Shown here piece after piece: positions 18,140 to 34,830 of a stretch of 64,000 nucleotides of DNA. The notes under the pieces are model-generated. The model was not told where the DNA came from. It worked only from the letters and a program-made list of their open reading frames with translations, and did not search any database. The position numbers were made by a program, and so were the translations under genes. This DNA comes from Acetobacteraceae bacterium (lineage in GTDB: Bacteria > Pseudomonadota > Alphaproteobacteria > Acetobacterales > Acetobacteraceae). Position 1 is the first letter of the stretch. Each line of letters starts with the position of its first letter. Where the stretch lies: positions 1,277,501-1,341,500 of the forward strand of contig CP039459.1 of the NCBI GenBank assembly GCA_004843165.1, in the 5' to 3' direction.

Positions 18140-18284
18140 GAAGTCTTCCCAGTAAATCAATGAGGATAAATATATTTATGGGGAAAAAGAGTCGAAAAAG
18201 CGATATTTTTCTCTTCCTTTATCCTTATTTATGGCATTTAAGAAGAGTATGGACTTTTCTCGTGAGTAAAGAGGTTAAAGTGAG

Positions 18285-18635
18285 ATGAAAGAGAAATTAG
18301 AAAAAATGAATGGCGCTGTTCTTATTGTTTTGGCAGGGTTTATTTTCTCTCTCAGCGGCTGTTTGGCTGGGCACTCTAAAAAGATATCTGAGGCAGCACC
18401 ATCCTCTATCGAAAAAGTGATACATATTATTTCAGTTTCTCCCCTTCCAGAAACAGCAAAAGAGAATGCAACACGTGTGGAGATCGCTTATCAAGACACA
18501 GATACGATGGCATTTGAGTTTTTTCAAGAGGACAAACGCCCTTGCGAATTTCATCCGGGTGAGGCAAATTTAATCATCGAAAAAGGGGAGCGATCTCTGA
18601 TCTTACCAAATGCAATCTGTGCCTTATCTGAATGA
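18285..18635 (+). CDS. Small predicted lipoprotein
   Basis: A 116-residue product with a lipoprotein signal: a charged start (MKEKLEKMNG), a hydrophobic core (AVLIVLAGFIFSL) and the lipobox LSGC with the modified Cys around residue 26. The mature part is short and polar, with one Cys in RPCEFHPGEAN and one near the C-terminus, which could form a disulfide. I recognise no family. It lies about 135 bases upstream of the type I secretion genes on the same strand and might belong with them, but separate transcription is equally possible. Confidence 0.8.
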   Translation: MKEKLEKMNGAVLIVLAGFIFSLSGCLAGHSKKISEAAPSSIEKVIHIISVSPLPETAKENATRVEIAYQDTDTMAFEFFQEDKRPCEFHPGEANLIIEKGERSLILPNAICALSE

Positions 18636-18770
18636 AGTCTTCCGCCCAGAAGCGAGATAAGGTAGAGAGGAACTTCGTCATTTGATATGGATAGGGTGTC
18701 TTTGCATTAACATAATGCCTGAAATATTTTTAGCTAAAATGGTCATGTATTCTCTGAGGAAGGAAATCTG

Positions 18771-21167
18771 GTGACGTCTATACCGCCCGAAGATTCCAAC
18801 AAGCAACCGGAAAATTCCGAGAATTCTTCTCAGGAAAACCAAAAGACCCAGACTTCTTTCGAGGAAAAGGCAGGGGAATTCGATCCTCTTAAAACACGTC
18901 TTCAAGCGGTGATGGCCGCTGCACGTTTCCATGGCGTTGTTCTTGATCCTTCTCTTTGCGCAAAACCTGAAGATGGCAAGCCTGTTTCGCCCGCTGCCTT
19001 AGCTTTGTGGGCAAGGGAAGGGGGCTGTGTTGCCAAGGCAATGCGTTTGCATGCGGATTATTTGCTCAATATGGGTAAAACACCGCCAATCGTTTTGATG
19101 TTCCGAGATGGCTCTGCCGCCCTTATGGTCGGAGGGAATCAGGAAAGAAAAGTTGTTTTACTTAGAGATCCTTGGGATGAACCCCGTTCAGAACCTGTTC
19201 CTGTGGATATTTTACGTTTAAATCGTTTGTGGAACGGTGACGTTTTATTGCTCAAACGGCGTGTGGATGAAACAGAGCGAGAAGCGCCTTTTGATTTGGA
19301 TTGGTTTATAAAACTGGTTCTGCGCCAAAAAAAGGGTCTAAGAGATGTTTTAATTTCCTCTATGCTGATGAGCGTTTTACAGCTTTTTCCTGGCCTGATT
19401 GTGATGCAAGTTGCAGATCGTGTGGTAAATTATCATTCGATGGCAACTTTGGTGTCTTTAAGCACTTTTGTTATTGTGCTCTCCATTTATGAAGTTGTTT
19501 TGACACATGCGCGGCAAGAGCTTGTCTTGGGAATTACGACACGTTTGGACGCTAGAATTTCTATCTATGCCTACGAACGCCTTCTTTCATTACCTTTGGA
19601 ATTTTATGAAAGAGAGCAGACGGGGGAAATTTTATCGAGATTTTCTCAGATTTTCGCCGTTCGAAACTTCATGACAGGCCCATTGCTCAATACTTTTTTA
19701 GATCTTTTTGTCCTTATTGTTATTCTGCCGGTTTTATTTTTTCTTAGCCCAACAATGGCCTGGCTTACGCTGATTGCCTCAGGGATAATCGGTGTGATTG
19801 CTTTATTGATGCTGCCTTATGCTTCTGCAGTGGAAAGCAATACCATTCGCGCAGAGATGAAGCGGAATGCTGTTTTGTATGAAACTGTTGCAGGGATTCG
19901 TACGGTTAAAACAATGGCCCTGGAATCTACTAGAAAATTCTTATGGGATGAAAAAAGCGCTGTCGTCGTTAAGTGGCGTCTTGCTGGTGGCCGGATGAGC
20001 AACTGGATTTCGACAGCCGTACAGCCTTTTAATATGTTTATTAATCGTGGGATCATTCTTGTCGGTGCTTATATCATTTTGACCAATGATAAAAGCGGCA
20101 TGCAGACTGGGACGCTCATGGCTTTTATGATGTTGGGGGGACGTGTGGCCTCACCTTTAGTGAATCTGGCGCGTTTGACGGAGAATTTTAATGAGGTCAG
20201 AGTTGCCCTTTCTGAAGCCGGAGCCGTTTTAAATCAGCCAACAGAACTTAAAGAGTTGACATCTGGCCTTACGCCCAAAATTAAAGGGGAAATTCATTGT
20301 TTAGATGTCAATTTTTCCTATCCGGGGTCAACACGGAAGGCTTTAAATAATGTTAATTTCCATATCCCCGCTGGAACAATGTTAGGGCTAGTGGGTAAAT
20401 CCGGTTCCGGGAAATCAACTATTACACGCTTACTTCAAGGGGTGAGCCGTGATTATACGGGCTTTTTGCGGCTGGATGGTATTGATTTGCGGGAAATTAA
20501 TCTTACCCATTTGCGCCGTTCAGAAGGTTCAGTGCTGCAGGATAATTTTCTCTTTAGAGGGACGATCGCTGAAAATATCGTTGCAGGTCGTCCGGGCCTT
20601 ACGATGGAAGATGTGATTAATGCCTGCCGTTTGGCAGAGGCTGAAGAGTTTATCGAAAGATTGCCAGCTGGCTATGAGACAATTATCGAGGAAGGTTCAA
20701 CCAATATTTCCGGTGGTCAGCGTCAGCGCTTAGCAATTGCACGTGCCGTTGCTAATGATCCCAAATTGATGATTTTGGATGAGGCAACAAGTGCACTTGA
20801 TCCGGAATCTGAAGCGATTGTGAATGCAAATCTGGAGCGTATCGCAAAAGGTCGTACGATGGTGATCGTTTCTCATCGCCTTTCTTCCTTGGTGCGCTGT
20901 GATTTGATCGCTGTTTTAGAGCAGGGACGCTTGGTCGATATTGCGCCTCATGCAACGCTGGTAGAGCGTTGCGAGATTTACCAATCTCTTTGGAATCAAC
21001 AGAATGAGCATATGATTAGACAGCTGGAAGAGGCAATGGAGGCAAGTAATAAATCGGCTAAGGATAAAGAATTCATAAAAGAGGAAATAGAGGATTTAGA
21101 AGAGTCTCTAGATATGGATAAGGGGAAAAATAAAGCCTCTGATGAGAAAGATAATGGCGATGCGTGA
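18771..21167 (+). CDS. Type I secretion ABC transporter (HlyB/LapB-type) with degenerate C39-like domain
   Basis: Inner-membrane ABC exporter of 798 residues. Domain order: polar N-terminal tail (1-40); a C39-peptidase-like domain (about 45-160) without a recognisable catalytic Cys/His dyad, as in substrate-docking CLD domains; a six-helix membrane domain (about 180-460); an ATPase domain with Walker A GKSGSGKST, signature NISGGQRQRLAIARA and Walker B LMILDEATSALD; and a highly charged C-terminal tail after about residue 740. The start is GTG, with GAGGAAGGAAA upstream. It exports a protein together with the membrane fusion protein encoded next. No obvious RTX-type substrate gene is in the window, so the cargo is unknown. 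Confidence 0.93.
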   Translation: MTSIPPEDSNKQPENSENSSQENQKTQTSFEEKAGEFDPLKTRLQAVMAAARFHGVVLDPSLCAKPEDGKPVSPAALALWAREGGCVAKAMRLHADYLLNMGKTPPIVLMFRDGSAALMVGGNQERKVVLLRDPWDEPRSEPVPVDILRLNRLWNGDVLLLKRRVDETEREAPFDLDWFIKLVLRQKKGLRDVLISSMLMSVLQLFPGLIVMQVADRVVNYHSMATLVSLSTFVIVLSIYEVVLTHARQELVLGITTRLDARISIYAYERLLSLPLEFYEREQTGEILSRFSQIFAVRNFMTGPLLNTFLDLFVLIVILPVLFFLSPTMAWLTLIASGIIGVIALLMLPYASAVESNTIRAEMKRNAVLYETVAGIRTVKTMALESTRKFLWDEKSAVVVKWRLAGGRMSNWISTAVQPFNMFINRGIILVGAYIILTNDKSGMQTGTLMAFMMLGGRVASPLVNLARLTENFNEVRVALSEAGAVLNQPTELKELTSGLTPKIKGEIHCLDVNFSYPGSTRKALNNVNFHIPAGTMLGLVGKSGSGKSTITRLLQGVSRDYTGFLRLDGIDLREINLTHLRRSEGSVLQDNFLFRGTIAENIVAGRPGLTMEDVINACRLAEAEEFIERLPAGYETIIEEGSTNISGGQRQRLAIARAVANDPKLMILDEATSALDPESEAIVNANLERIAKGRTMVIVSHRLSSLVRCDLIAVLEQGRLVDIAPHATLVERCEIYQSLWNQQNEHMIRQLEEAMEASNKSAKDKEFIKEEIEDLEESLDMDKGKNKASDEKDNGDA

Positions 21168-23190
21168 AGGGCCTGAATCTCATTGGAAAACCAGCCGTTT
21201 TGAACGTTTTATAGCCTTTTTGCTTAAGCCATTTTCACCGTTGATACGGTTTATTTTAGGTGTCTCCGAAGAGGAAAGAAATGCAAGGCAGGCTGAAAAA
21301 CGACGTAAAAAATCTCTTAGGGCAGAAAATAAAGCTGAAAAGATTGCGGAAAAAGCGCTGAAAAAAGCGCAGCTACAGCAAGGCAAAGCAGAAAAAAAAT
21401 CCGCAGAAACAGTAAAACAGGCGGAAGAGCCGGAAGTGGCCTCGCCTGAACTTCCAGAATTTTTTGGCCCGCATCCGGCGCAAGAGCAAGAAGAACAAAA
21501 ACAAGAAAAAACAACAGATCTTGAGGAAGAGGTAATTTCTCAACTCAATAAGACAGAGGCGGCATTAGATGCTGAGATTCCCTTAAAAGGGAAGGGGGCA
21601 GGGTTTTTTAAAACGATTGTTTTATATGCGACAGCGCCTATTGTTTTTTTGCGTTATGGCATCGGGAAAATTGGGGGAAAATCTTTTTTTTCTCATAATT
21701 TACGTAAAAATATTCAAGAAGACGGTTTCTTTGTCGGGAGTGTGCATTACTTTTCTGATTTGAGAAAAAAATCTAAAAAGAAGGCAGAGGAAAAGGCCAA
21801 TAATCCCCGATATAAAGATCCTTTAGGTGCTGGGGATGAACCGTTAGAACTGTTAGAGTTCCGTTCTCCAACAGTTGCAATTGTAAATACGCCCTTACCG
21901 CCACTTGCACGTTATATTATTTGGGTCATGCTGGGGCTAATTGCCAGTATGTTGCTTGCGATGGTATTGTTGCCCATTAATAAAGTGGTTGTGCTTAAGG
22001 GGCGTTTAATTAGCAAACGGCCTATGATTCTGGTTCAGCCAACAGATCAAGGGATTGTGCTTGATATTAAAGTTCGTGTCGGCGATGTTGTTAAAAAAGG
22101 GCAACTTCTAGGGGTGATGGATCCACGTTTGACACAATCTGAACTGGTTGCAATGCGAGAAGAGCTTAAGATTTATCAGGCTCTTGTTGCACGTTTAAAG
22201 GCCGAGGTTGCTGATCGTCCTTATGTTCCTGATGAGTCAGATCCTGCTTCTTTGGAGCAGGGCAAAAACTATTTACATCGCCAAAAAGATTTTAGAGCAA
22301 AACTAGAAACGATAGATGAAACGATTGCAAGCCAGCAAACTACTTTGCAGGGGGCTGAAGCGTCAGCCGCTATGTATGGTAGTAAATTACGTATTGCTTT
22401 AGAGCTTTTGCGCATTCGTCAGGCAGAACAGCATCATGAGGTTGGCACACGTCTTGGAACCTTACAGGCGCAAGACGCTGTGATGGATACAGAGCGCCAG
22501 CTTATTGAGGCGCAAAAAGCGGCGAATAGTGCACGATCCGAATTAAAGGGGGAGCAAGCAAAACGAGAAAGCTTTTTGCAAAGCTGGAAGGCTGAGGCTT
22601 ACAGTCTATTAGCCGAAACAGAGGTTAAGTTAGCAACGGCACAATCAAGCTATGATCAAGCACAAGTTAAGAATGAACTGGTTAATTTAAGAGCCCCTGA
22701 GGATGGTATCGTTCTCTCACAGGGAAAAATTGCTCGGGGAGCAACGCTGAGCGCAGGGATGCCTTTTATGACCTTGGTTCCGCTCAAGGGTGGGATAGAA
22801 ATGGAAGGTTCAATGAAAGCCGAAGATGCTGGATATGTTAAAACAGGTGCGCATGCGATCATAAAATTCGTAAGCTTTCCATATGATGTCTATGGTGGCG
22901 CAGAAGGGAGTGTGTCTGTCATTAGTGCAGATTCCTTCTTACCGATGGAAGCCGTTAGTGAAAATACGCAGGAAGCCGTTTTGCCACCAGATGAAAAGGC
23001 TGCTCTTTTTTACCGTGTTAAGGTAAGCCTTGACCGTTATACTTTGCATGGAACACCAAAATTTTTCCATCCAGGCCCTGGGCAAGTTGTTACAGCAGAT
23101 TTGGATGTTGGTAAGCGAACCATGATGCAATATTTCTTTGGTAATGTGAAAACAAATTTATCAGAAGGTATGCGGGAACCTTCAAATTAA
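21160..23190 (+). CDS. HlyD-family type I secretion membrane fusion protein with long cytoplasmic N-terminus
   Basis: Periplasmic adaptor linking the ABC exporter to an outer-membrane channel. The membrane helix (WVMLGLIASMLLAMVLL) comes only after about 255 residues; ordinary HlyD proteins have it near residue 60. The preceding part holds a Lys/Glu/Ala-rich coiled-coil-like region (about 30-80), an acidic Gln/Glu region and another basic stretch (LRKKSKKKAEEKA). After the helix come a barrel-sandwich half (QPTDQGIVLDIKVRVGD), a long coiled coil, the second half (NLRAPEDGIVLSQGKIARGA) and a C-terminal beta domain. The start overlaps the ABC gene. ATGs at 21142, 21154 and 21160 are possible; the last has GAGAAAG upstream. 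Confidence 0.9.
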   Translation: MREGPESHWKTSRFERFIAFLLKPFSPLIRFILGVSEEERNARQAEKRRKKSLRAENKAEKIAEKALKKAQLQQGKAEKKSAETVKQAEEPEVASPELPEFFGPHPAQEQEEQKQEKTTDLEEEVISQLNKTEAALDAEIPLKGKGAGFFKTIVLYATAPIVFLRYGIGKIGGKSFFSHNLRKNIQEDGFFVGSVHYFSDLRKKSKKKAEEKANNPRYKDPLGAGDEPLELLEFRSPTVAIVNTPLPPLARYIIWVMLGLIASMLLAMVLLPINKVVVLKGRLISKRPMILVQPTDQGIVLDIKVRVGDVVKKGQLLGVMDPRLTQSELVAMREELKIYQALVARLKAEVADRPYVPDESDPASLEQGKNYLHRQKDFRAKLETIDETIASQQTTLQGAEASAAMYGSKLRIALELLRIRQAEQHHEVGTRLGTLQAQDAVMDTERQLIEAQKAANSARSELKGEQAKRESFLQSWKAEAYSLLAETEVKLATAQSSYDQAQVKNELVNLRAPEDGIVLSQGKIARGATLSAGMPFMTLVPLKGGIEMEGSMKAEDAGYVKTGAHAIIKFVSFPYDVYGGAEGSVSVISADSFLPMEAVSENTQEAVLPPDEKAALFYRVKVSLDRYTLHGTPKFFHPGPGQVVTADLDVGKRTMMQYFFGNVKTNLSEGMREPSN

Positions 23191-23216
23191 ACCCTTGCCA
23201 CTTAAGAAGAAGGATT

Positions 23217-25076
23217 ATGACCTCTTTATTTTTTAAAAACTCAGGTTCTAGAGCACTGCAAAAAAAACGTTCGCGCGCAGATCGGAAAATGATGCTTCGT
23301 GCAATGAAAATGCTTGAGGAACAAAAAGACACAGAGGCTTTTCCCCTTTTTTCTGTATTGGCAACGAAAGGGGATGCTGAAGCACAGTGGCACGTCGGTA
23401 AATTCTATCTTGCAGGGCAGGCTGTACCTTATTCCCTCGCCGATGGGGTTTATTGGGTACATCTTTCCGCACAGCAGGATTTTCCACCTGCTTGTTTAAC
23501 GCTTGCACATCTTTATAAGGACGGTCTGCCGTCTTCTTTGGACTTATCGCAACACGATCAGGTACTTTCTGCCAGTCTCAACGATGAACGGGAAGCTAAT
23601 TATGAAAAGGCGCAGTTTTGGGCAGAAAAAGCTGCAGAGGCAGGGGATGTCAATGCTCAGGCCTTTTTAGGATCTTTGCTCCGTAAAGCGGCACAGGCTG
23701 GTCAGGTAAAAGAAGAGCATCAAACTCAGGCCGTAAAATGGCTTCAGCGTTCGGTTGAAGGTGGGTCTGTGATTGGTAAATTAGAGCATGGCCGACAGAT
23801 CTTGGAGGATGAAGGGTATTTGAAGCCGGTCGAAACATTGGCCGCTCCTCCTTTACCCACGGAGATATTTTATAAAGCTGTTTGTTATCTTGAGGAGGCT
23901 TTGGAGGAGGGCGCCATGGGGGCAGCACTGCTCCTTGGCTGGCTTCGTCTTCATGGCCCTGAGACTTTTAGAGATATTGGGAAGGCGATTTCCTTGCTGG
24001 AGAGCGTTGCGGAAAAGGGTTTTTCACAGGCGCAATACCGTCTTGGATTGCTATACATGCAGAATTATCCTGGAGCTTCCGCTGATTTTAAAAAGGCAGA
24101 AAAATGGTTAACGCAGGCTTTAAGGAGAGAAGTTGCTCCTGCAGGTTATACGCTTGGGCAGCTTTATGAAGTGATCCTACCGGAAGCAAAGCGTGATAAA
24201 GTTTTAGCCATGAAATTTTATCATGCGGCTGCGCTTTTAAAGGATGTTCCTGCCATTTTACGTCTGGCGCATTTGCTGGTTGAGGGGATTCCTGAGCGTG
24301 ATATTAAGCCTGATTTGCGAAAAGGAGCCTTTTGGTTTTCACGTGCATCAGGCTTAGGAAATCAGGAGGCCCAAGTTGAATTTGGAAATCTTCTCCTTCA
24401 TGGTGTGAGCGTGCCAAAGGAAGAAGGTGAGGCGTGGCGAGAGGGCTTAGAGCAGGAAGCGGAAAAAGGCTCCCATGAATCAGCGTATAATCTTGCGCTT
24501 TCTTATTTGGACGGCATTGGTGGAGAGAAGGAAGAGCATTTAGCCCGAAAATGGCTTGAGAAATCTGCCACTTTTTTCCCAGAAGCTGCTTATCAATATG
24601 GTAAAATGCTTTTTGAAGGAAAAGGGGGAGAACGGGATCTTGAAAAAGCACGTTATTTTTTTGAAAAATCGGCTGAAGCAGGTCAGATAGAAGGCTGTTT
24701 GGCTTTAGCGCAGATGTATCTGCTCATCGAAAATATGAAGGATCATCCTCGTGCATTGGCATTGTATCATCAAGCCGCAGAGGCCGGGAGCGCAGATGCA
24801 ATGTTTTCTTTAGGTGCAATGTATGGTGGTGGGCATGATGTTCCGATGGATCGTTTTAAGGCGCGCTACTGGTTTGTTTTAGGGGCTGAAAAGGGGAATC
24901 CTTTAGCGCAATATATGGCCGGACGCTATTATTTGCGATCTTTGGGCGGTGAGCGTGACTTGGAAAAAGCGTATTTTTGGCTCAGCAAGGCCGCTGAAAA
25001 AGGGGTTAAGGAAGCACAGGAAAATTTATCTGCTCTTCAAAGAGAACTAAAACTCGTAAAGATGAGAGATAAATGA
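23217..25076 (+). CDS. Sel1-repeat (SLR/TPR-like) protein
   Basis: A 619-residue solenoid protein made of many Sel1-type repeats. Copies of the pattern AxxxLGxxYxxGxGxxxDxxKAxxWxxKAAExGxxxA are clear, for example AQWHVGKFYLAGQAVPYSLA, AFWFSRASGLGNQEAQVEFG, ARYFFEKSAEAGQIEGCLAL and AYFWLSKAAEKGVKEAQENL. No signal peptide or membrane segment is seen, so it is probably cytoplasmic. Sel1 proteins are usually scaffolds. Placed between the secretion genes and a glycosyltransferase with which it shares an ATGA overlap, it may bring those machines together (inference). No catalytic domain is visible. Confidence 0.9.
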   Translation: MTSLFFKNSGSRALQKKRSRADRKMMLRAMKMLEEQKDTEAFPLFSVLATKGDAEAQWHVGKFYLAGQAVPYSLADGVYWVHLSAQQDFPPACLTLAHLYKDGLPSSLDLSQHDQVLSASLNDEREANYEKAQFWAEKAAEAGDVNAQAFLGSLLRKAAQAGQVKEEHQTQAVKWLQRSVEGGSVIGKLEHGRQILEDEGYLKPVETLAAPPLPTEIFYKAVCYLEEALEEGAMGAALLLGWLRLHGPETFRDIGKAISLLESVAEKGFSQAQYRLGLLYMQNYPGASADFKKAEKWLTQALRREVAPAGYTLGQLYEVILPEAKRDKVLAMKFYHAAALLKDVPAILRLAHLLVEGIPERDIKPDLRKGAFWFSRASGLGNQEAQVEFGNLLLHGVSVPKEEGEAWREGLEQEAEKGSHESAYNLALSYLDGIGGEKEEHLARKWLEKSATFFPEAAYQYGKMLFEGKGGERDLEKARYFFEKSAEAGQIEGCLALAQMYLLIENMKDHPRALALYHQAAEAGSADAMFSLGAMYGGGHDVPMDRFKARYWFVLGAEKGNPLAQYMAGRYYLRSLGGERDLEKAYFWLSKAAEKGVKEAQENLSALQRELKLVKMRDK

Positions 25077-28039
25077 CAGCGGATTTTCTTTTTAAGCCTG
25101 TAAAAGAGGAAGGGGCTCTCTATGGATGGGAGCCGGATTTTGAACGTCAAAAAGCTTTCAAAGAGAAAGTCACCGAACGTGCAAAAGCCTTATATGAACA
25201 AGGGTTGCAACGTTCAGAAAAGGGGGATTTGATCGGGGGATGGATGTCCCTTGGATATGCAAGCCGCCTGTTACCCCATGAACCACATTTTTCCTTTGCA
25301 TATGCTTTGAGCTGTTTAAATGTAAAAGCATCTGATCTGGCTTTAAAAAGAATGACAGATCTTCTAAAGCAGTATGATTACCGTGGGGCGGCTTTTGGAC
25401 GTGTTTCCGCATTATTCCAAATGCGGGATCTTTCAGGCGCTGTGGCGACGATGGCAGATTCTTTAGCGCGCTTTGCGATTGGACAGGATATTTGGGAGTT
25501 TGTTCTTTTTCTGGCGCAACAGGCTGATTATGCAGGAGGGGCCGGTTTCTCGTTGGAAGAGGGAAAGCTATGGCTTTCTGGAGCTGGGAAGGTCTCTTTA
25601 CTTCTTGATGGACGCTTAATTCAGAAACTAACTTTGTCTGAAGGGCTTCAAAAATTTTCATTACCTTCCCATTGGAAAACAGCCGAGCGTTTGCGGATTA
25701 AAGGTGAAGGTAAGGGTTTTCTTGGGGCTGAGATTGATCTATTGGCCATGCGGCGTATGAAATCTTTAGCGTGGCACGAGCAGAATATTCTTTATGCATG
25801 GGTCGAATATCCAGCAGATCCTGATTTTACATCTATCCCTATCTGTGAGAGTCACAATCAGAAAAAAGAAATGAGAGAGGACTTTAAGGAAAATCCTCTT
25901 TTTTATCAGGGGCTTGGAAAGCCCAAAATGTATCATTTGCCGATAGCTTTTCAAGAGGGCTCTCGTTTCGAGATTAAGGATATTTTTCAGCGTGAGTTTT
26001 GGGGGAGTCCACTCTCACCCCCATTTTCTCAGGGGACTATCCCCCCAATGACTAAGGCACGTTCTGGAAGGCCGGGAGAAGGGCGAGATTTTGTTATTAT
26101 CGTACCTGTTCATGGGAAAGAAATTTTTGTGAGACGAACGCTGGCTTCTCTCGTTAAAACTTTACCTCTCAATAAAGGCTTTCATTTTCAAGGTGAAATT
26201 CTTGTCGTTGATGATGCGAGTTCAGAAAAATCATTAAAACGTTACCTAACGAAGCTGGCAAAAGAAAAAAAAATTACCCTTTTGACGCACCAACAGCAAA
26301 AAGGTTTTGCGGTGAGTGTTAATCTTGCGTTGCAACATGCAGATGGCAGAGATGCTATTTTATTTAATAGTGACGCTGTGGCTTTCGGAAATTGGGCTGT
26401 GCGGCTTTTGACTCATTTGCGGCATAAAAATGCAGGAACAGTTACACCTTTTGGGAATAAAGCCGGACAGATGTCTTTCCCAGAGAAGCAGGATAGAGAA
26501 GTTTCGCCAGCAGAGGCGCATCGATTAGATCATTTATTCGCAGAAATCGGCAATTCTCAAAATCCTGTTGCGCTTGTGACAGGTAATGGTTTTTGTATGG
26601 GAATTTCTGCAGAATGTTTGGCACAAACAGGAGGCATTACCGAAGGTATTTTTGCTCAGGCCTATGGCGAAGAGGTTGATTTCTGCCTGCGAGCAACAAA
26701 AAAAGGCTTTAAACATTTTGCAGCAGAAAATGTGTATGTTTATCACGAAGGGCGAGGAAGTATTGGAGGCGCTGGGTCTGCGCTCTTTTTGAGAAATCAG
26801 GAAATTTTAAAAAAACGTCACCCTGCCTTTCCTTTGAAGGTGTGGAAATTTGAAGAGGCAAACCCTTTTGGCCGTTATCGACGACTTATTTCTGAAAGAA
26901 TTTTACAAAAGAAAATGCGTCAGAGTGCGCCGGTTCTTATCGTAAGCCATGCGATCGGCGGCGGGGTGACACGTTATATTGCGCAGCGCTGTAAAAATTT
27001 AGAAAAAGAGCATAAAACACCGCTTTTACTTATTCCAACAAAAGAGGGATGCCGTTTGGGACTTGTGAATGAAGTCGGAGAAATTTCTTATAATGAGGCA
27101 ACTTTTTCTTTTTCTTTGCCTGAGGAACAACTTTTACTCATCGCCGTCCTACGTCGTTTAAAAATTACAGAGGTTGAGTATCATAATTTTGTTGGACATT
27201 CACGATCCATTCGTAAACTGGCAGAGCAATTGGAAATTTCCCCAACTATTTTTGTCCATGATCATGCCACTTTTTGTCCGCATATTACTCTGATCGGCGA
27301 AAATGACCATTATTGTGGTGAGCCTGATGTAAAATCGTGCCAAAAATGTACCGTTAAACGCTTTCAGAAAATTCATAAAGGCGGCATAGAGGAAGGGTCT
27401 TCGCCAGATGTTTCAAAATTTTTAGCCGAAAATCTTACAGAGATGAAAAAGGCTAAAAGGATTTTGACACCATCGAGAGATTCCGCACAACGATTAAAGC
27501 GCCATTTTCCCGAAATTACACCGGAAGTATTCTCGCCTGAAAATACGCTAACGCTTTTTCAGAAAAATTTTTATAAAAGGCGGCAACATCAACACCGTCC
27601 GTCAAAACATATCTGGAGGGTAGGGATTGTCGGGGCTTTGAGTGTTTGGAAAGGTGCCTTAATTTTAGAAAAAATTGCTCTGGAGGTGCAAAAACTTTCT
27701 TTACCGATACAATTTTTTCTTATTGGCCATGCTATCAATGAAAAAGCTTTGGAAAGTGCCGGAGTCGAGATTACAGGCGTTTTTGCGGAGGATGAAATCA
27801 AAACGTTACTTGCTACACTTGATTTGGATGCCGTCTTACTGCCATCTATTGCCCCAGAAACATGGGGATATGCTTTTAGCCATGTTGTTGAAGCTGGACT
27901 TTTTACCTTTTGTTTTGATATTGGAAGCGTTGCGGAAAGAGTTCGTCTTTTGGGGGAAGAGGCCGGATTTGTGATTCCCTTGGCTTTTCCACCAGGGCGT
28001 ATCGGGCAGTTTTTAATTCAAAAGCTGTCCTGCAGATGA
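25073..28039 (+). CDS. Bifunctional glycosyltransferase: TPR-like N-terminus, GT2 domain, GT4-like domain
   Basis: A 988-residue cytoplasmic enzyme. Residues 1-200 are helical and TPR-like. A GT2 (GT-A fold) domain starts near 340 with VIIVPVHGKEIFVRRTLASL, has LVVDDASS and LFNSDAV in place of a canonical DxD, and GEEVDFCLRATKKGF. A GT-B (GT4-like) domain starts near 620 with PVLIVSHAIGGGVTRYIAQR and contains a Cys cluster (FCP, then YCGEPDVKSCQKC) like that of some GT4 enzymes, possibly metal-binding. The end shows PETWGYAFSHVVEAGL, resembling the nucleotide-sugar site. Translation is coupled to the Sel1 gene (ATGA). Two transferase domains imply two successive sugar additions. Confidence 0.88.
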   Translation: MTADFLFKPVKEEGALYGWEPDFERQKAFKEKVTERAKALYEQGLQRSEKGDLIGGWMSLGYASRLLPHEPHFSFAYALSCLNVKASDLALKRMTDLLKQYDYRGAAFGRVSALFQMRDLSGAVATMADSLARFAIGQDIWEFVLFLAQQADYAGGAGFSLEEGKLWLSGAGKVSLLLDGRLIQKLTLSEGLQKFSLPSHWKTAERLRIKGEGKGFLGAEIDLLAMRRMKSLAWHEQNILYAWVEYPADPDFTSIPICESHNQKKEMREDFKENPLFYQGLGKPKMYHLPIAFQEGSRFEIKDIFQREFWGSPLSPPFSQGTIPPMTKARSGRPGEGRDFVIIVPVHGKEIFVRRTLASLVKTLPLNKGFHFQGEILVVDDASSEKSLKRYLTKLAKEKKITLLTHQQQKGFAVSVNLALQHADGRDAILFNSDAVAFGNWAVRLLTHLRHKNAGTVTPFGNKAGQMSFPEKQDREVSPAEAHRLDHLFAEIGNSQNPVALVTGNGFCMGISAECLAQTGGITEGIFAQAYGEEVDFCLRATKKGFKHFAAENVYVYHEGRGSIGGAGSALFLRNQEILKKRHPAFPLKVWKFEEANPFGRYRRLISERILQKKMRQSAPVLIVSHAIGGGVTRYIAQRCKNLEKEHKTPLLLIPTKEGCRLGLVNEVGEISYNEATFSFSLPEEQLLLIAVLRRLKITEVEYHNFVGHSRSIRKLAEQLEISPTIFVHDHATFCPHITLIGENDHYCGEPDVKSCQKCTVKRFQKIHKGGIEEGSSPDVSKFLAENLTEMKKAKRILTPSRDSAQRLKRHFPEITPEVFSPENTLTLFQKNFYKRRQHQHRPSKHIWRVGIVGALSVWKGALILEKIALEVQKLSLPIQFFLIGHAINEKALESAGVEITGVFAEDEIKTLLATLDLDAVLLPSIAPETWGYAFSHVVEAGLFTFCFDIGSVAERVRLLGEEAGFVIPLAFPPGRIGQFLIQKLSCR

Positions 28040-28049
28040 TTACTTTGAG

Positions 28050-28079
28050 TTGTCACTCATTGGATTTTTTTTGTATGAT
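28050..28079 (+). promoter_or_regulatory. Possible sigma70 promoter inside the secretion-glycosylation cluster
   Basis: TTGTCA (28050-28055) and TATGAT (28074-28079) are separated by 18 bases in the 89-base gap before the ChW-like gene, followed by an AT-rich leader. Good matches to both hexamers suggest that the distal genes can be transcribed separately. Confidence 0.4.
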
Positions 28080-28128
28080 ATTTTGTCGCTCTTCTACATT
28101 TTTTAACCTTCGTTTTTAGGATCTTCGT

Positions 28129-28995
28129 TTGCCTGATAAAGCTTCTTCTATGCTCATAGGTGAGCTCAAAGTGCGTGCCCATGTTATGACATTGGGAAGC
28201 GGTGTTTACTGCCTTTTTCTCGCAAAAGATAAAGGAATTCTTTCTTCAAAAGAATTTCCGGCTGTTAAAGTTTCCCTTGCTCCGGGGGAAAGGGGAGAGA
28301 GTGACAATGTTTCTATCTCTTCCTTTGACAATGAGGGCTGGCTGAATGAAGAGACTTCAGCGCTTCTGGTCAAGGTGAAAACCGGTCCTGCGAAGATCTT
28401 AGTTTCCTTTTATGATGAGATGGAATCCGATGCCGCTTTGCCGCGTTTGCAGCTTCTGCAAGTCGGTGGAGAGGAAGAACAAAAAAACGATCTTTTAGGG
28501 ACAAAAACACGACGTGAAGAGGATTTTAAAGAGGGGCATCTTTTAGCGCACATCCAGGAACAAGGGGATGTGCTTCAGCCGATTTCTGACTGGATAGGTG
28601 AGATCGGGAATAATCTTTGGATTGAGGGGTTTAAAATTGCGGTTCCGCCGCCCCTTAAACCGCAAGATTTGGAGTATCAAGCTGTTTTAGGAAAAGGTTG
28701 GCTTTCGCCGTGGGTTGAAGGCGGCGAGTTTTGCGGATCTCGTGGTATGTCTTTGCCGCTTCTTGGTTTGAAAGTTCGTTTATGTGGCGAGATTGCACAG
28801 AAATGGGAGCTGAAGATAGAGGCCGCTTTTACAGACGGTTTTCGGATTGATAATCTTCAAGAACGTGAGTTAACCTTAGAATCACCTGATCATGCGCCTT
28901 TAGAGGCTTTTAAGATTACTTTCGAGGAAAAATCTCAGAAAAAAACGGTTAAAAAAGCATCTTCACGGTCTAAAAAATCAGAGAAGAAAAAATGA
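28129..28995 (+). CDS. Hypothetical protein with one ChW-like (hydrophobic-W) motif
   Basis: A 288-residue protein starting at TTG with AGGA about 8 bases upstream (alternative: ATG at 28150). No signal peptide is seen. I place it in no named family, but residues about 184-222 contain EYQAVLGKGWLSPWVEGGEF followed by CGSRGMSLPLLGLKVRL. This fits the ChW pattern (Y..HV...GW..WV..G...GT.G...R.E.I.I.L) known from surface proteins. The C-terminus is a Lys/Ser-rich tail (KKASSRSKKSEKKK). Lying between two glycosyltransferase genes, it may bind a glycan or a glycosylated partner. That is inference. Confidence 0.75.
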   Translation: MPDKASSMLIGELKVRAHVMTLGSGVYCLFLAKDKGILSSKEFPAVKVSLAPGERGESDNVSISSFDNEGWLNEETSALLVKVKTGPAKILVSFYDEMESDAALPRLQLLQVGGEEEQKNDLLGTKTRREEDFKEGHLLAHIQEQGDVLQPISDWIGEIGNNLWIEGFKIAVPPPLKPQDLEYQAVLGKGWLSPWVEGGEFCGSRGMSLPLLGLKVRLCGEIAQKWELKIEAAFTDGFRIDNLQERELTLESPDHAPLEAFKITFEEKSQKKTVKKASSRSKKSEKKK

Positions 28996-29036
28996 TTTTT
29001 CAAACAGATATTCTTTGTAAGAAATAAATTTTTTAG

Positions 29037-30257
29037 ATGCGATATCTTTTTGTTCACCAAAGTTTCCCTGGGCAGTATCTGCATTATATTAAGTGGTTAC
29101 GTGCCCGTGGGCACGAGGTTGTTTTTATTACATCCGCTCCAAGAAGCAATTTTTTGCCCGATGTGCGCAGGATACAATATGTACAGCCGCCGCCTATGAA
29201 AGGTTTACATTCCGGCGTAGCGGATCTGAATCAGGCTGCTTTGAGAGCAGAAGCCGTTGCACAAGCCGCACGATCTCTTAAAAAACTTGGCTATATGCCG
29301 GATATTATTATTGGACATCATGGGTGGGGTGAACTGCTTAATCTAAAAGATGTTTTTCCAGATTCCCCTATTCTAGGTTATTTTGAGTTTTACTACGCAG
29401 CGCAAGGATTAGATGTCGGTTTTGATCCAGAATTTTTATCGCATGAAGCGCTTGCAGGACAGGTGCGTTTAAAAAATTCGGTGAATTTACAGGCACTTGC
29501 TTTGGAGCAATATGGACAAACACCGACTTTGTTTCAGCGAAATACTTATCCGCCACTCTTTCGAAAAAAAATTGCCCTTGTTTCAGAAGGGGTCGATTTA
29601 GAGAAATGTAAACCTGATTCTGAAAAGATGGGCTCTAGCTGGTCTTTTGAAGAGACGCATATTAAAAAAAATGTTCCTTTAGTGACCTATATTTCCCGTA
29701 ACCTAGAGCCTTATCGGGGATTTCATAGCTTTATGCGGGCACTCCCAACGATTCTCTCTCAAAATGCACAATGCGAGGTAGTGATTGTCGGAGGAAATGG
29801 GGTGAGCTATGGCGCATTACCGCCAGAGGGTGGCGGATGGAAACAGCGCCTTTTACGGGAGATCGGTGGACTTATCGACATTAAGCGTGTTCATTTTATC
29901 GAATATCTTCCTTATAAATTCTTTGTTACGCTTCTCCAGCGTTCTTGGGCGCATATTTATTTAACCTATCCTTTTGTTCTTTCATGGTCTTTGAGAGAGG
30001 CGATGGCAATTGGTTGTCCAATTGTTGCAAGTGATACAGCCCCTGTGAAAGAGTTTTTAACCGATAGTGTTAATGCCCGTTTGGTGCCTTTTTTAGCGCC
30101 AAAAGAAATTGCGGATAAGGTTCTTGAGTTACTCGAAGACAGAGAGCAGGCTTATGGGCTGGGTTTGGCTGCACGGAGAGAGGCGGAAGCAAAAATGGAG
30201 ATGAATCTCTGTTTGAATTTGTATAATGAGCTTATCAATAAGATTGCGAGAAAATAG
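29037..30257 (+). CDS. GT4-family glycosyltransferase
   Basis: A 406-residue GT-B glycosyltransferase. The N-terminus MRYLFVHQSFPGQYLHYIKW fits the acceptor domain start; PDIIIGHHGWGE lies near residue 89. The donor domain contains VTYISRNLEPYRGFHSFMRA (around 218), VVIVGGNGVSYG and, near 320, YPFVLSWSLREAMAIGCPIVASDTAPVKEF, matching the E(x7)E-like nucleotide-sugar site of GT4. The donor sugar cannot be told. The gene follows the ChW-like gene by 41 bases and is followed after 2 bases by the WVVQR-repeat gene, so it is part of the same transcription unit. Confidence 0.92.
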   Translation: MRYLFVHQSFPGQYLHYIKWLRARGHEVVFITSAPRSNFLPDVRRIQYVQPPPMKGLHSGVADLNQAALRAEAVAQAARSLKKLGYMPDIIIGHHGWGELLNLKDVFPDSPILGYFEFYYAAQGLDVGFDPEFLSHEALAGQVRLKNSVNLQALALEQYGQTPTLFQRNTYPPLFRKKIALVSEGVDLEKCKPDSEKMGSSWSFEETHIKKNVPLVTYISRNLEPYRGFHSFMRALPTILSQNAQCEVVIVGGNGVSYGALPPEGGGWKQRLLREIGGLIDIKRVHFIEYLPYKFFVTLLQRSWAHIYLTYPFVLSWSLREAMAIGCPIVASDTAPVKEFLTDSVNARLVPFLAPKEIADKVLELLEDREQAYGLGLAARREAEAKMEMNLCLNLYNELINKIARK

Positions 30258-30259
30258 AA

Positions 30260-30694
30260 ATGCTTCAGAATGATGACGATTTTGTCCTTTTTGCCCAAGA
30301 AAGCAGTTTGCCGCAGGAATTGGCAAATTTTTTAAAAGAGTGGGTTGTTCAGCGTCAAGAGGGTAAGAAGCCTTCAGCTTTGACACAAGAAGAGATTAAT
30401 CATCTATCCTTTTTATCCGTCAGTTGTTTGCGTCAAAGAGCTTTAGGCGAAAAAAATACAGGTTCATGGTCTCCTTTACTGCCCTTGCTTGAAAATTGGG
30501 TTGTTCAACGCCGAAAAGGGGAGCTGCCAACAAAAATAACGGTTCAAGATTGTCAGGATCTTGTACGCTTAGTGCTTAAAGCCTTAATTACTCCGATTTA
30601 TATTGAGCAAAAGTCGGAGAATGCTCTTTTAGAGAATAAAGAGGTAGAAGATCCTCTTTTTTTCCTAAGAGAACATCTCTCCCAAGGCCTTTAA
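30260..30694 (+). CDS. Small protein with duplicated WVVQR motif
   Basis: A 144-residue protein of unknown function, soluble by appearance. It contains an internal duplication with a 52-residue period. Residues 21-57 (LANFLKEWVVQRQEG, KPSALTQEEINHL) align with 72-109 (PLLPLLENWVVQRRKG, LPTKITVQDCQDL), both reading LxxWVVQRxxGxxPxxxTxxxxxxL. The repeats look like short helical modules. The start lies 2 bases after the stop of the GT4 gene, so it is probably translated with it and may be its partner. Its stop overlaps the convergent cfa stop by 4 bases. Confidence 0.78.
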   Translation: MLQNDDDFVLFAQESSLPQELANFLKEWVVQRQEGKKPSALTQEEINHLSFLSVSCLRQRALGEKNTGSWSPLLPLLENWVVQRRKGELPTKITVQDCQDLVRLVLKALITPIYIEQKSENALLENKEVEDPLFFLREHLSQGL

Positions 30695-32032: not shown

Positions 32033-34594
32033 TTAAAAAGAATTAGGTTTTTTTAACTGATGAAAAGTATCTCCCTCTAAAATAAAGTTTTTAGGATAGA
32101 AGGGGTCTTGTTGAAAAAAGGCAACTTCTCCCCAGCGGTCAAGGAGAGACTGACTTTCTTGAAAAAGTCTGCGTTCATTTTGGTTTATTTCATCACTGCC
32201 ACGGCTAAAGCTTTCATGATGAATGGCTGTCGCATCTGCACAATAATAAATATGATAGCCGTGTGCCCGGAGGCGTAAGCAGAAATCAACATCATTGTAA
32301 GCAATCGGAAAATGTTGCTCATCGAATTCTCCAATTTCGACAAAAAGATTTTTTGATGTGAGGAGGGCTGCACCTGTTACTGCAGAAACTTCCTGGCTGA
32401 GTCCTGCGCGCGCCATATAGCCAAGATCCTTGTCGTCTCGTCCCCTATGCATGTGAACAGCAATGGCCTGAGGAGAGACGGCAACACCGCCATGCTGTAT
32501 GCGTTTTGACGGATAGAGGAGACGTGCCCCAATGGCTCCGGCTTTTGGGAGGTTAAGTATTTCGCCCATCATATTTGAGAGAAAATCTTTTTGCCTGACT
32601 TCGACATCATTATTGAGAAATAATAAATATTCACTCTGTGCTTCTTGGGCCGCCAGATTATTAAGGCGGGAAAAATTAAATTCCTCTTCAATGCGTAAGA
32701 TAGAAACTTTTTTATTTTGAGAGAGTCTTTTAAGCATTTGATGCGTTTCGGCTTCAACAGACCAATTATCAATCAATAAAATTGAAAAATTGCTGTATGA
32801 CTGCTTTTTGAGGAGAGAGGAGACACATCTCTCTGTCATTTTGCTTTGATCTCTAAAGGGAATAATGATGGTGACAGAAGGTATTTTTTGGGGAAGCGTC
32901 CATTTGGTTTTATAAAGCGTGATTTTTGGTATTGGCGCAACCGTTGCGTTTAATCCCTGCCTTTCAAAATGATGTCGCACAGCTTTGGCGCCATTATTTT
33001 TGGCATATTTTTTATTTTCTGAAGATAAAGCAGTTGAGTTCGGGGTCTGCCGCCAGTGGTAGAGAATCTCCGGCACATGCGCAAAACCATCTGGAGAGGC
33101 TTCATAAGCTTTCAGCAATAAAGCATGATCTTGTGCCCCATCGTAAATTTTTTCAAAGCCGCCAATCTTTTGTAAAAGAGAACGACGATACATCGTTAAA
33201 TGGCAAATATAATTACAGCCTAAAAGATAGCGATAGTTAAAATCGGGTTTGAAATGTGGGGCGTGTAAAACACCTGTTAAGCTAATTTTATCTTCATCAG
33301 AATAGAGAATTTCTGCACCTGTTTTAAGCGCAGCACGCAACATGACTTCACAAGCATTTGGATCAAGGAGATCATCGTGGTCGAGAAAGAGAATATATTC
33401 CCCCGTTGCATTTTCGAGGGCTTTGTTCGTGGCCTTTGCGATCCCTTGTGCTTTTGAAAGCGATAAAAGTGTCAGCCGTGAATCTTCTTTTTGAATGTCT
33501 TTGACGATATTTTGTATATTAGCATTTTGCGGCCCATCAAAAACAAGGATCAGGTTCCAATTTTGATAGGTTTGATTTTGAACGGATCGAATAGCTTCTA
33601 AAAAATGCTCTTTATCAGGATGGAAGACGGGGCAAATAATGGACAGAAGCGTTTCTGTACTTAGGGGAGCTTGCCGCTGCTGTTGCTTTACACGTGTGGT
33701 GAGTGATTTTTGATAATAGCGGTGCCATCGATCATATTCTTCAATAGAGAATTTATGTGTATGCGGCATTAGGGAGAGAGTTTCACGTCTAAGCTGTGTC
33801 AGCTGTTGCTGCAGCATATCAAGCATATTATTTAGGCCTGCGAGCCGTGTTGCAATGCCGTCGTCACTGTATTTTGAACGAATGGGGCTGCCAGAAACAG
33901 GTATTTTTTGAGGGAGAATGGAAACACTGAACTCGTGGTAAGCGCCATCTCGGAGAGAAGCCGGCAGAGGATAGTTAAAGCCACAGGCTTGATCTGGTTC
34001 CGATGTAGAAAAATTATCCTGCTTTAGACTTTGCGAGACATCCGCGCGCTGACGGTCTGCTCGGAGACGGGCAAGCGGACGGCCATCTATATGGATATCA
34101 ACGACCAGTTGGCCTTTCCATTTTCCATAACGGCCTGTTCGCTGTACAGCCCATCCTCTCAGATGGCCGTCATGGAGACCTTCGAAATAGGATCTGGTTT
34201 CGGTCTCTTCTTTCCCATTGAAAATCCATTCTGGTAAAAGCGGTTCATGAGAGGGAGGAGCATCAAAAAAATAAGCTGGGAAAGGAAGGATAGAGCGATC
34301 TGGAAAACGTAGAGAGATCCATCTTGTTTTGCCATCAAAGAATTTTTTAGGCACTTCCCAGTGAAAGCCAATATTCGGATTTGTATGTTGATAGCGTAAA
34401 GCTTCTTCCGGGCGGGGAAGGTTACAGGCAACCCGTTCAATTTCCTGTCCGTCAACTAAAATATGGATCCATGTCTCTTCAGAGCCTCTTGGTACAGCTC
34501 TACGATGCGAGATGGCCCAACCTTCGATAACGCCATGGGAAAGATGTGTGATCTGGCCATGGAAGAGATTGGAAAAAGATGTAGGTGTCGCCAC
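32033..34594 (-). CDS. Large glycosyltransferase: two N-terminal accessory repeats and two GT2 domains
   Basis: An 853-residue protein starting at GTG (AGGAAAT upstream). Residues 1-260 hold two copies of a beta-rich accessory module, GxxxGWAxx...hVDGxxhxR...GFxxxhPxxhxDGxxh, beginning at GVIEGWAISHRR and HLRGWAVQRTGR. A first GT2 domain starts near 318 (LSIICPVFHPDKEHFLEAIR) with DHDDLLDP as metal/nucleotide site. A second starts near 571 (VTIIIPFRDQSKMTERC) with LFLNNDVEV and ends with YNDVDFCLRLRAHGY. Such tandem GT2 enzymes make repeating or two-sugar units of surface glycans. Divergent from pstC and just upstream of cfa on the same strand. Confidence 0.9.
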   Translation of the reverse strand: MATPTSFSNLFHGQITHLSHGVIEGWAISHRRAVPRGSEETWIHILVDGQEIERVACNLPRPEEALRYQHTNPNIGFHWEVPKKFFDGKTRWISLRFPDRSILPFPAYFFDAPPSHEPLLPEWIFNGKEETETRSYFEGLHDGHLRGWAVQRTGRYGKWKGQLVVDIHIDGRPLARLRADRQRADVSQSLKQDNFSTSEPDQACGFNYPLPASLRDGAYHEFSVSILPQKIPVSGSPIRSKYSDDGIATRLAGLNNMLDMLQQQLTQLRRETLSLMPHTHKFSIEEYDRWHRYYQKSLTTRVKQQQRQAPLSTETLLSIICPVFHPDKEHFLEAIRSVQNQTYQNWNLILVFDGPQNANIQNIVKDIQKEDSRLTLLSLSKAQGIAKATNKALENATGEYILFLDHDDLLDPNACEVMLRAALKTGAEILYSDEDKISLTGVLHAPHFKPDFNYRYLLGCNYICHLTMYRRSLLQKIGGFEKIYDGAQDHALLLKAYEASPDGFAHVPEILYHWRQTPNSTALSSENKKYAKNNGAKAVRHHFERQGLNATVAPIPKITLYKTKWTLPQKIPSVTIIIPFRDQSKMTERCVSSLLKKQSYSNFSILLIDNWSVEAETHQMLKRLSQNKKVSILRIEEEFNFSRLNNLAAQEAQSEYLLFLNNDVEVRQKDFLSNMMGEILNLPKAGAIGARLLYPSKRIQHGGVAVSPQAIAVHMHRGRDDKDLGYMARAGLSQEVSAVTGAALLTSKNLFVEIGEFDEQHFPIAYNDVDFCLRLRAHGYHIYYCADATAIHHESFSRGSDEINQNERRLFQESQSLLDRWGEVAFFQQDPFYPKNFILEGDTFHQLKKPNSF

Positions 34595-34611: not shown

Positions 34612-34830
34612 ATGATGTCTCTTTTATACAATATACCCGATGTCTTTAGAGATAGCCATTTGCATTCTGAGGCGAGGAGAGGTAAAGGAAGGAAAACAAG
34701 GCGTCTTGGTCGGGGGAAACAAGTCGCTTTTTTGACAATTTATCTCTTTCGTGAACTTATGAGGCAGACGTTGCAACACGCAGCCCCTTCCGTAGAAACA
34801 GCTTTTAGCCGAATGTTTCTGCAAGGATGA
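34612..34830 (+). CDS. Possible small leader ORF coupled to pstC
   Basis: A 72-codon frame fills the gap between the large glycosyltransferase and pstC; its TGA overlaps the pstC ATG (ATGA at 34827-34830). The product is basic and matches no family I know. It is worth noting because pstC has AAGG directly against its ATG and therefore no well-spaced ribosome binding site, which coupling to an upstream frame would explain. It may equally be chance in a promoter region, since its start overlaps the leader of the divergent gene. Confidence 0.3.
   Translation: MMSLLYNIPDVFRDSHLHSEARRGKGRKTRRLGRGKQVAFLTIYLFRELMRQTLQHAAPSVETAFSRMFLQG

What the first reader, a model, noticed from the sequence alone, without database searches (positions are those of the whole stretch)
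18285..30694. Possible secretion-coupled glycosylation system: T1SS, Sel1 scaffold, two glycosyltransferases, ChW-like protein and WVVQR protein
From 18771 to 30694 the genes lie on one strand, mostly with very small gaps or overlaps: ABC exporter, membrane fusion protein, Sel1-repeat protein, GT2-GT4 fusion, ChW-like protein, GT4, duplicated-motif protein. Type I exporters normally sit beside their large substrate, but none is here. The mix of an export machine with sugar transferases, a scaffold and a putative carbohydrate-binding motif suggests that a surface protein is glycosylated in the cytoplasm and passed to the exporter. The lipoprotein gene at 18285 may belong to it.
Basis: partly seen in the sequence, partly recalled or inferred. 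Interest (0 to 1): 0.72.

Follow-up and report, generated by a model that had tools for sequence, protein, structure and literature searches.

The report
Sugar-enzyme-coupled type I secretion cluster
Bacteria related to acetic acid bacteria carry a conserved block of genes that joins a protein-export pump to sugar-attaching enzymes, and a likely exported protein was found elsewhere in their genomes; whether it leaves the cell carrying sugars, or helps sugar chains leave, can now be tested.

Summary
Six genes (ABC exporter, adaptor, Sel1 protein, GT2-GT4 enzyme, ChW protein, GT4) form one operon-like block. Close orthologues of ABC, ChW and GT4 mark the same 33 of 80 relatives. The lipoprotein and WVVQR genes are clade-limited. 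A candidate for the missing substrate was traced: a family of Ser/Thr/Asn/Gly-rich, degenerate-RTX proteins encoded elsewhere, found in 100 of 145 ChW-positive and 6 of 75 ChW-negative family members. In 13 of 20 chosen loci its gene lies near further glycosyltransferase genes, two of them homologous to a GT2-GT2 gene behind the window cluster. The window species has a short, weakly similar member about 366 kb away. In one relative, exporter, enzymes, ChW and three substrate genes are broken together. In Azospirillum a substrate-like gene precedes a natural fusion of the GT2-GT4 and ChW proteins. The closest known system is Sinorhizobium galactoglucan (EPS II), where a type I-secreted calcium-binding protein is needed for a polysaccharide. 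Exporter, enzymes and exported protein as one unit is well supported. Glycosylation of the protein before export is my first choice but unshown; a polysaccharide role is the main rival.

The parts
18771..21167 (+). Type I secretion ABC exporter, HlyB-like with N-terminal C39-like region (798 aa, GTG start)
   Evidence: TIGR01846 over 44-745, below its cut-off; close orthologue in 33 of 80 relatives
21142..23190 (+). HlyD-type membrane fusion protein (682 aa) with a charged N-terminal extension of about 200 aa, inferred to be cytoplasmic; most orthologues outside the genus are about 460-550 aa
   Evidence: TIGR01843 above cut-off; lengths
23217..25076 (+). Sel1-repeat protein (619 aa), seven stretches reported
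   Evidence: PF08238; in place in 20 of 24 loci
25073..28039 (+). Multidomain glycosyltransferase: N-terminal helical (TPR-like, by reading) part, beta region, GT2 domain, C-terminal GT-B half (988 aa)
   Evidence: PF00535; model helices in 23-150 with block pLDDT 72-94, whole-model mean 63.2; Foldseek matches to GT-B enzymes
28150..28995 (+). ChW-motif protein, beta-rich model and a Lys-rich tail (281 aa from the ATG; the listed ORF starts at TTG 28129)
   Evidence: PF07538 above cut-off; 33 of 80 relatives; fused to a GT2-GT4 homologue in Azospirillum
29037..30257 (+). GT4 glycosyltransferase with PF12000 N-terminal domain (406 aa); 37% identical to a GT4 in the Sinorhizobium EPS II region
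   Evidence: PF12000, PF00534
30260..30694 (+). WVVQR two-repeat small protein (144 aa), clade-limited accessory gene
32033..34594 (-). GT2-GT2 glycosyltransferase (853 aa), likely accessory enzyme: homologues lie near the cluster in G001 and G032 and near substrate genes in G009 and G018
   Evidence: two PF00535 stretches
18285..18635 (+). Small predicted lipoprotein, among 24 loci found only in the window congener; membership doubtful

Best explanation
The cluster is the export-and-glycosylation half of a two-locus system. The ABC/adaptor pair exports a dedicated family of degenerate-RTX, Ser/Thr/Asn/Gly-rich proteins encoded elsewhere. The glycosyltransferases (GT2-GT4, GT4, and in the window clade GT2-GT2), with the ChW and Sel1 proteins as targeting or scaffold parts, build glycans on the unfolded protein in the cytoplasm before it passes through the type I channel to the cell surface. 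Shown here: conservation of the block, co-occurrence with the substrate family, nearness of related glycosyltransferase genes to many substrate genes, the ChW/GT2-GT4 fusion, and joint decay in one genome. Inferred: secretion of this protein by this exporter, its glycosylation, the order of events, and the roles of ChW and Sel1.
For: ABC, ChW and GT4 (close orthologues) in an identical set of 33 of 80 genomes. Six-gene order in 20 of 24 loci, 19 of 23 distinct. Substrate profile A1 (12 rows from nine genomes, each cluster-positive): E<1e-20 in 24 of 33 cluster-positive and 1 of 15 cluster-negative members of the family; without the nine, 15 of 24 vs 1 of 15, p 7e-4. Over 220 family genomes 100 of 145 ChW-positive vs 6 of 75, p 2.7e-19; without the nine, 91 of 136 vs 6 of 75, p 7.6e-18; kinship not corrected for. 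Of the six exceptions G081 and G176 have the ABC orthologue, G125 and G157 have it in pieces. Glycosyltransferase genes of three kinds in 13 of 20 chosen substrate loci, against 0 of 24 cluster loci for two kinds and 2 of 24 for the third. In G157 0 of 10 system genes are intact, 18 of 24 other ORFs are. In Azospirillum thermophilum a substrate-like gene, a GT2-GT4 + ChW fusion and, one gene on, a GT4 homologue (43%) lie together. Among 22 neighbouring window proteins read, none looked like a polysaccharide flippase or polymerase (by reading). No PF00353 repeat in G000 or G001, so no ordinary RTX protein competes there.
Against: No glycan or secretion data. The closest characterised relative is described as a polysaccharide system in which the secreted protein is needed for EPS II. 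45 of 145 ChW-positive genomes lack a profile hit at E<=1e-15, though at most 7 candidates per genome were scored. G005 and G114 have the substrate but no exporter orthologue; their assemblies are 90% and 73% complete. Distant GT4 homologues occur in 10 genomes without the cluster. In the window species the putative substrate is short, matches only weakly (E 5.8e-5) and has no recognised glycosyltransferase neighbour. Seven of 20 substrate loci have none either. G157 has interrupted ORFs outside the system too.
Confidence: 0.5

Rival explanations
1. EPS-II-like system: the glycosyltransferases make an extracellular polysaccharide, and the type I-exported RTX-like protein is an accessory needed for making, exporting or anchoring it, as reported for ExpE1/WgeA of Sinorhizobium meliloti. 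The protein itself is not glycosylated.
For: GT4 is 37% identical to the GT4 beside the MarR regulator, type I ABC, adaptor and calcium-binding gene of S. meliloti; a similar arrangement stands in Phyllobacterium. [quoted passage not shown] another paper says that absence of galactoglucan in a tolC mutant is explained by lack of WgeA secretion. RgpF-like genes (F4, named after rhamnan synthesis) lie at nine of 20 substrate loci (Pfam confirmed for two). Bradyrhizobium has partial homologues of GT2-GT4, ChW and GT2-GT2 plus GT4 together, without a type I gene in the stretch.
Against: Among 22 neighbouring window proteins read, none looked like a sugar-nucleotide, priming-transferase, flippase or polymerase protein (by reading; rest of genome not searched). 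The exporter is HlyB-like, 29% identical to the S. meliloti ABC. Substrates have 20-27% Ser+Thr, the S. meliloti protein 7%.
Confidence: 0.33
2. Co-located but separate functions: a type I exporter for adhesin-like proteins and enzymes for an unrelated surface glycan, kept together by shared regulation or by descent.
For: The block occurs within one family in these searches and co-occurrence was not corrected for kinship.
Against: Identical 33 of 80 sets for three markers; substrate loci often carry glycosyltransferases; RTX-like or type I genes near the GT4 homologue in 7 of 10 plasmid loci that I chose; joint decay in G157.
Confidence: 0.12
3. In the window species the real substrate is a different, unrecognised protein, and the nadE-linked protein is a relic. 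(This question is separate from the other three; the odds do not add up with them.)
For: Weak similarity (E 5.8e-5, congener 1.6e-3), short protein, no RTX repeat, no recognised GT neighbour.
Against: It lies next to a nadE-like gene, as does the clear member of G032, and a nadE-like gene (F1) is in eight of the 20 other substrate stretches; conserved DTISAAG motif and matching C-terminal region (by reading); open frames in both congeners, 49% identical.
Confidence: 0.25

Closest known systems
Sinorhizobium meliloti galactoglucan (EPS II; exp/wg) locus: ExpD1-ExpD2 type I exporter, secreted calcium-binding ExpE1 (WgeA), glycosyltransferases including ExpC (WgcA)
   Same: Type I ABC + adaptor, an RTX-like exported protein and several glycosyltransferases in one genetic unit; the GT4 enzymes are homologous (37%); profile A1 scores the S. 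meliloti calcium-binding protein at 37.7 bits (E 2.1e-12 in a set of 32 proteins; repeats contribute)
   Different: HlyB-like instead of PrtD-like ABC; Sel1 and ChW proteins have no match among the S. meliloti neighbours compared; no MarR regulator or dTDP-sugar genes recognised in the block; substrate gene not linked to the exporter. The names ExpC and others for the record's genes are inferred from gene order and the reviews; the record's annotation does not give them
SwmA of Synechococcus WH8102 and oscillin (glycosylated RTX surface proteins)
   Same: RTX proteins of the cell surface described as glycosylated (passages of PMC3034196; SwmA in a table of PMC2943079)
   Different: Cyanobacteria; canonical repeats; no gene-level comparison was made here
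Accessory Sec / serine-rich repeat glycoprotein systems (GtfA and others)
   Same: Cytoplasmic glycosylation coupled to a dedicated exporter (recalled); the model of the GT2-GT4 protein matches GtfA among many GT-B enzymes
   Different: SecA2/SecY2 export, Gram-positive (recalled); no specific homology shown

Membership tests
Type I secretion system (HlyB/HlyD type) | ABC exporter with transmembrane and ATPase domains | tested here: met
   PF00664 and PF00005 above cut-off
Type I secretion system (HlyB/HlyD type) | HlyB subfamily TIGR01846 at its curated cut-off | tested here: not met
   510 bits vs 725.55: HlyB-like, not filed in that subfamily
Type I secretion system (HlyB/HlyD type) | HlyD adaptor TIGR01843 at cut-off | tested here: met
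   254.1 vs 208.65
Type I secretion system (HlyB/HlyD type) | TolC-type outer membrane channel in the genome | not tested
   no search was made for it
RTX substrate family | Nonapeptide repeats PF00353 in the exported protein | tested here: inconclusive
   present in several relatives' proteins; no match in G000 or G001 or in the window-species candidate
S. meliloti EPS II (exp/wg) system | WgcA-type GT4 | tested here: met
   homologous over the full length, 37%; homology, not proven orthology
S. meliloti EPS II (exp/wg) system | PrtD-like ABC (ExpD1) orthologue | tested here: not met
   29% identity only and HlyB-like N-terminus
S. meliloti EPS II (exp/wg) system | MarR-family regulator and dTDP-sugar genes in the cluster | tested here: not met
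   none among the eight proteins scanned nor, by reading, among 22 neighbours; rest of genome not searched
S. meliloti EPS II (exp/wg) system | Makes galactoglucan | not testable with these tools
   needs chemistry
ChW (PF07538) | Score above the gathering threshold | tested here: met
   33.1 vs 22, one stretch only

The most novel reading that the evidence does not exclude
Protein-primed polysaccharide export: the RTX-like protein is both primer and cargo. The multidomain glycosyltransferases build a long chain on it in the cytoplasm and the type I channel carries protein and glycan out together. This would also explain why ExpE1 secretion is required for galactoglucan in Sinorhizobium.
Probability: 0.15. 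Interest if true: 0.88.

Novelty: new variant of a known kind. Interest (0 to 1): 0.62.

Why it matters
Type I secretion is not usually thought of as a glycoprotein pathway. A widespread exporter that travels with its own glycosyltransferases, a ChW protein and a likely dedicated substrate family makes that idea testable in ordinary acetic acid bacteria. It also touches an older point: why a type I-secreted calcium-binding protein is needed for galactoglucan in Sinorhizobium.

Tried and rejected
Large substrate beside the cluster: none in the window. Upstream of ABC in 16 loci I first saw nothing conserved; on recount a small same-strand ORF with a C-x-C-C motif stands there in 9 of 16, without a Pfam match above cut-off for the two tested. 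It is not in the window locus and its role is open.

Ordinary RTX substrate in the window genome: no PF00353 match in G000 or G001; the weak hits in relatives led to the substrate family.

WVVQR protein as a domain fused to GT4 elsewhere: the GT4 tails seen are short or Lys/Ala/Pro/Ser-rich and were not hit by it.

ChW protein by structure: model pLDDT 62.1, no Foldseek match at E<=0.001; second look best Z 6.8 to Ig-like domains over residues 3-111, mostly low confidence: inconclusive. By sequence no PDB chain matches ChW, GT4 or GT2-GT4 at the limits used. The model of the GT2-GT4 enzyme (pLDDT 63.2) matches many GT-B enzymes with different acceptors, so it does not name the acceptor.

PHROGs: no match at E<=0.01 for five proteins. 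One substrate protein against plasmids: no match at E<=1e-10. Literature searches that returned no paper; the lists show no paper on this cluster, as judged from titles and abstract starts. Promoter-like sites 26 found vs 21.5 expected; terminator-like 27 vs 16.4, not interpreted.

Counts mended after checking: one interrupted ORF (222 aa) had been set aside wrongly as cut by a stretch end. The right control is 18 of 24 other ORFs intact in G157; Fisher p lies between 3e-5 (18 of 23) and 1.1e-4 (18 of 25). Dropped before this count: seven ORFs under 170 aa (two intact, five not) and two cut by stretch ends. These are mechanical ORFs, not all proven genes.
Full report
What is there. The window is G000:C1:1277501-1341500 of a 1,923,586-base genome. 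The best named relative of its GT4 in the plasmid collection is from Acetobacter aceti (51.5%), so I treat its family f1 as Acetobacteraceae; this is an inference. The six genes ABC, MFP, Sel1, GT2-GT4, ChW and GT4 lie head to tail with gaps of -26 to 110 bases, followed by the WVVQR gene.

Is the block real? Searches with ChW, ABC and GT4 over the same 80 relatives agree. ChW: 33 genomes at E<=0.001. ABC: 37 genomes at E<=1e-120, of which 33 at 49% identity or more; the other four (G016, G029, G038, G048) are at 34-39%, one of them (G038) with more bits (542) than the truncated orthologue of G031 (527), so identity and not bits was used. GT4: 43 genomes at E<=1e-40, of which 33 at 48% or more and 384 bits or more; the other ten (G004, G016, G022, G025, G029, G035, G036, G047, G058, G069) are at 38-44%. 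The limits were set after seeing the tables. The three sets of 33 are the same genomes, all in the window's family (33 of the 48 searched). Six genes in order: 20 of 24 loci, or 19 of 23 since L003 and L043 are one contig; L005, L039 and L042 are cut by contig ends; L045 (G027) keeps only the GT2GT4-ChW-GT4 half.

The substrate. G000 and G001 have no PF00353 repeat. In 21 chosen genomes, nearly all cluster-positive, weak PF00353 hits fell repeatedly into one protein family of about 440-500 aa, sometimes about 800 aa, with a shared start (VVGASG..VQVTVDG) and a conserved C-terminal stretch (TITDFGSAAGN ... ITFVGVTDL). Twelve members have Ser+Thr 20-27%, Lys+Arg 1-5% and 0-2 Cys. A profile of these 12 (A1), from nine cluster-positive genomes, over the 80 relatives gave E<1e-20 in 24 of 33 cluster-positive and 1 of 47 cluster-negative genomes (15 of these 47 in the family). 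Many cluster-negative genomes give weaker hits (about 1e-4 to 1e-10), probably ordinary RTX proteins, so the limit matters. Leaving out the nine genomes: 15 of 24 vs 1 of 15 in the family, p 7e-4. Over 220 family genomes (which include the 48): ChW 145, substrate at E<=1e-15 106, both 100, substrate without ChW 6, p 2.7e-19; without the nine, 91 of 136 vs 6 of 75, p 7.6e-18. At most 7 candidates per genome were scored, and G021, positive, was missed, so 100 is a lower bound. Relatives are not independent, so these p values are too small. Of the six exceptions, G081 and G176 have an ABC orthologue (52-53%), G125 has it in two pieces, G157 is discussed below, and G005 and G114 have only distant ABC matches; their assemblies are 90% and 73% complete.

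The window species' own candidate is at G000:C1:1673877-1674866 (minus; L119:8878-9867, 329 aa, start uncertain), outside the window, about 366 kb past the cluster. It is next to a nadE-like gene (named by reading), as is the member of G032, and a nadE-like gene is in eight of the 20 other substrate stretches. The profile match is weak (E 5.8e-5; congener 1.6e-3). The alignment with G032 keeps the DTISAAG motif and the C-terminal region (by reading). It has 20% Ser+Thr, 7% Lys+Arg and no Cys. I regard it as a shortened member; this rests on synteny plus weak similarity.

Substrate loci carry glycosyltransferases. Of 20 chosen stretches around substrate genes of 14 genomes, 13 (12 genomes) contain a GT4-GT4 or GT4-GT2 gene (F3), an RgpF-like gene (F4) or a homologue of the window's GT2-GT2 gene; seven contain none. 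F3 and F4 were defined from one of these loci (L126), so this is partly circular. The comparison set, 24 cluster loci, has 0 with F3 or F4 as best match and 2 with the GT2-GT2 type, both in the window clade; no random loci were tested. The two stretches of the window genus have none. The GT2-GT2 gene behind the window cluster (32033-34594, minus) is 68% and 44% identical to genes at the cluster in G001 and G032, and 42% and 37% to genes at substrate loci in G009 and G018: a link between the two loci.

Joint decay. G157 is a congener of G046, which has an intact cluster and three substrate genes. In G157 ABC and MFP are each in three frames, Sel1 in pieces with a stop, GT2-GT4 truncated with stops, ChW not found at E<=1e-8, GT4 in two frames, the three substrate genes interrupted, and the adjoining F3 gene interrupted. 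So 0 of 10 system genes are intact, against 18 of 24 other ORFs of 170 aa or more in the same stretches (p between 3e-5 and 1.1e-4). Intact meant one frame, no stop and over 90% cover. Six other ORFs, among them a methionine synthase, are also interrupted, so general decay or assembly error contributes; the frames were not checked against reads.

Outside the family. Among 226 plasmid records with a GT4 homologue I chose 10 loci. Seven have an RTX-like or type I gene in the fetched stretch: Methylobacterium (type I target protein), Azospirillum thermophilum (calcium-binding protein), Rhodovastum (DUF4214 protein, counted for its usual association, recalled), Pseudosulfitobacter (HlyD and ABC pieces), Phyllobacterium, Sinorhizobium and Phaeobacter (calcium-binding protein plus type I exporter). 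Three have none annotated: Acetobacter aceti (where ChW adjoins GT4 among insertion sequences), Azospirillum brasilense and Bradyrhizobium. In A. thermophilum a 1383-aa protein is a fusion: residues 217-1039 match the GT2-GT4 enzyme (30%) and 1098-1345 the ChW protein (29%). The calcium-binding gene just before it matches A1 with 80 bits (E 2.8e-25 in a set of 32 proteins) and has 22% Ser+Thr; GT4 (43%) lies one gene further on. In Bradyrhizobium partial homologues of GT2-GT4 (33% over 293 aa), ChW (24%, E 3e-7), GT2-GT2 (33% over 453 aa) and GT4 (42%) sit together without a type I gene in the stretch, which fits the polysaccharide rival.

How it probably works. The exporter, the enzymes and the RTX-like protein form one functional unit (about 0.85 by my judgement). 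That the enzymes glycosylate the protein in the cytoplasm before export is my first choice (0.5): large enzymes without obvious membrane segments (by reading), a Ser/Thr/Asn-rich acceptor, no polysaccharide export gene recognised among the 22 window neighbours read, and a ChW protein that is fused to the enzyme in Azospirillum. The rival (0.33) follows the S. [quoted passage not shown] PMC3233446; PMC2912261; the original paper of 2000 was seen only in reference lists). Both predict the same genetics; chemistry must separate them.

Novelty. I found no paper describing this cluster: searches returned none, and the lists of 52, 53, 60, 104, 112 and 114 show none by title and abstract start. The library holds open-licence papers only. 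It is a new variant of a known kind (type I secretion linked to glycan synthesis), not a new category.

Noticed in passing
G157:C1 (L152-L155) against G046 (L027, L127-L129): A relative in which exporter, glycosyltransferases and three substrate genes are broken together while 18 of 24 other ORFs are intact.
   Followed up: yes
L157:4092-8243 (Azospirillum thermophilum plasmid): Natural fusion of a GT2-GT4 enzyme and a ChW protein in one 1383-aa polypeptide, directly behind a substrate-like calcium-binding gene.
   Followed up: yes
upstream of ABC in L027, L029, L030, L031, L034, L035, L038, L041, L043: A small same-strand ORF with a C-x-C-C motif just before the exporter in 9 of 16 loci, absent from the window locus; no Pfam match above cut-off for the two tested.
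   Followed up: partly
window 30260-30694; L032:14752-15324; L025: WVVQR-type protein with two repeats and a similar C-terminal end; behind GT4 in the window genus and G032, elsewhere in G009.
   Followed up: partly
window 21142-21900: The adaptor protein has a charged, Lys/Glu-rich N-terminal extension of about 200 aa that most relatives lack.
   Followed up: no
family f1 genomes: 12 of 15 cluster-negative family members have 22 or more RTX repeat matches, while 26 of 33 cluster-positive ones have 5 or fewer.
   Followed up: partly
window 34827-38249: Phosphate-transport-like genes and a PhoU-like gene (named by reading) follow the GT2-GT2 gene; Sinorhizobium EPS II genes are PhoB-controlled.
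   Followed up: no
window 13672-18160: Five genes on the minus strand that look like biotin synthesis genes (by reading), divergent from the cluster.
   Followed up: no
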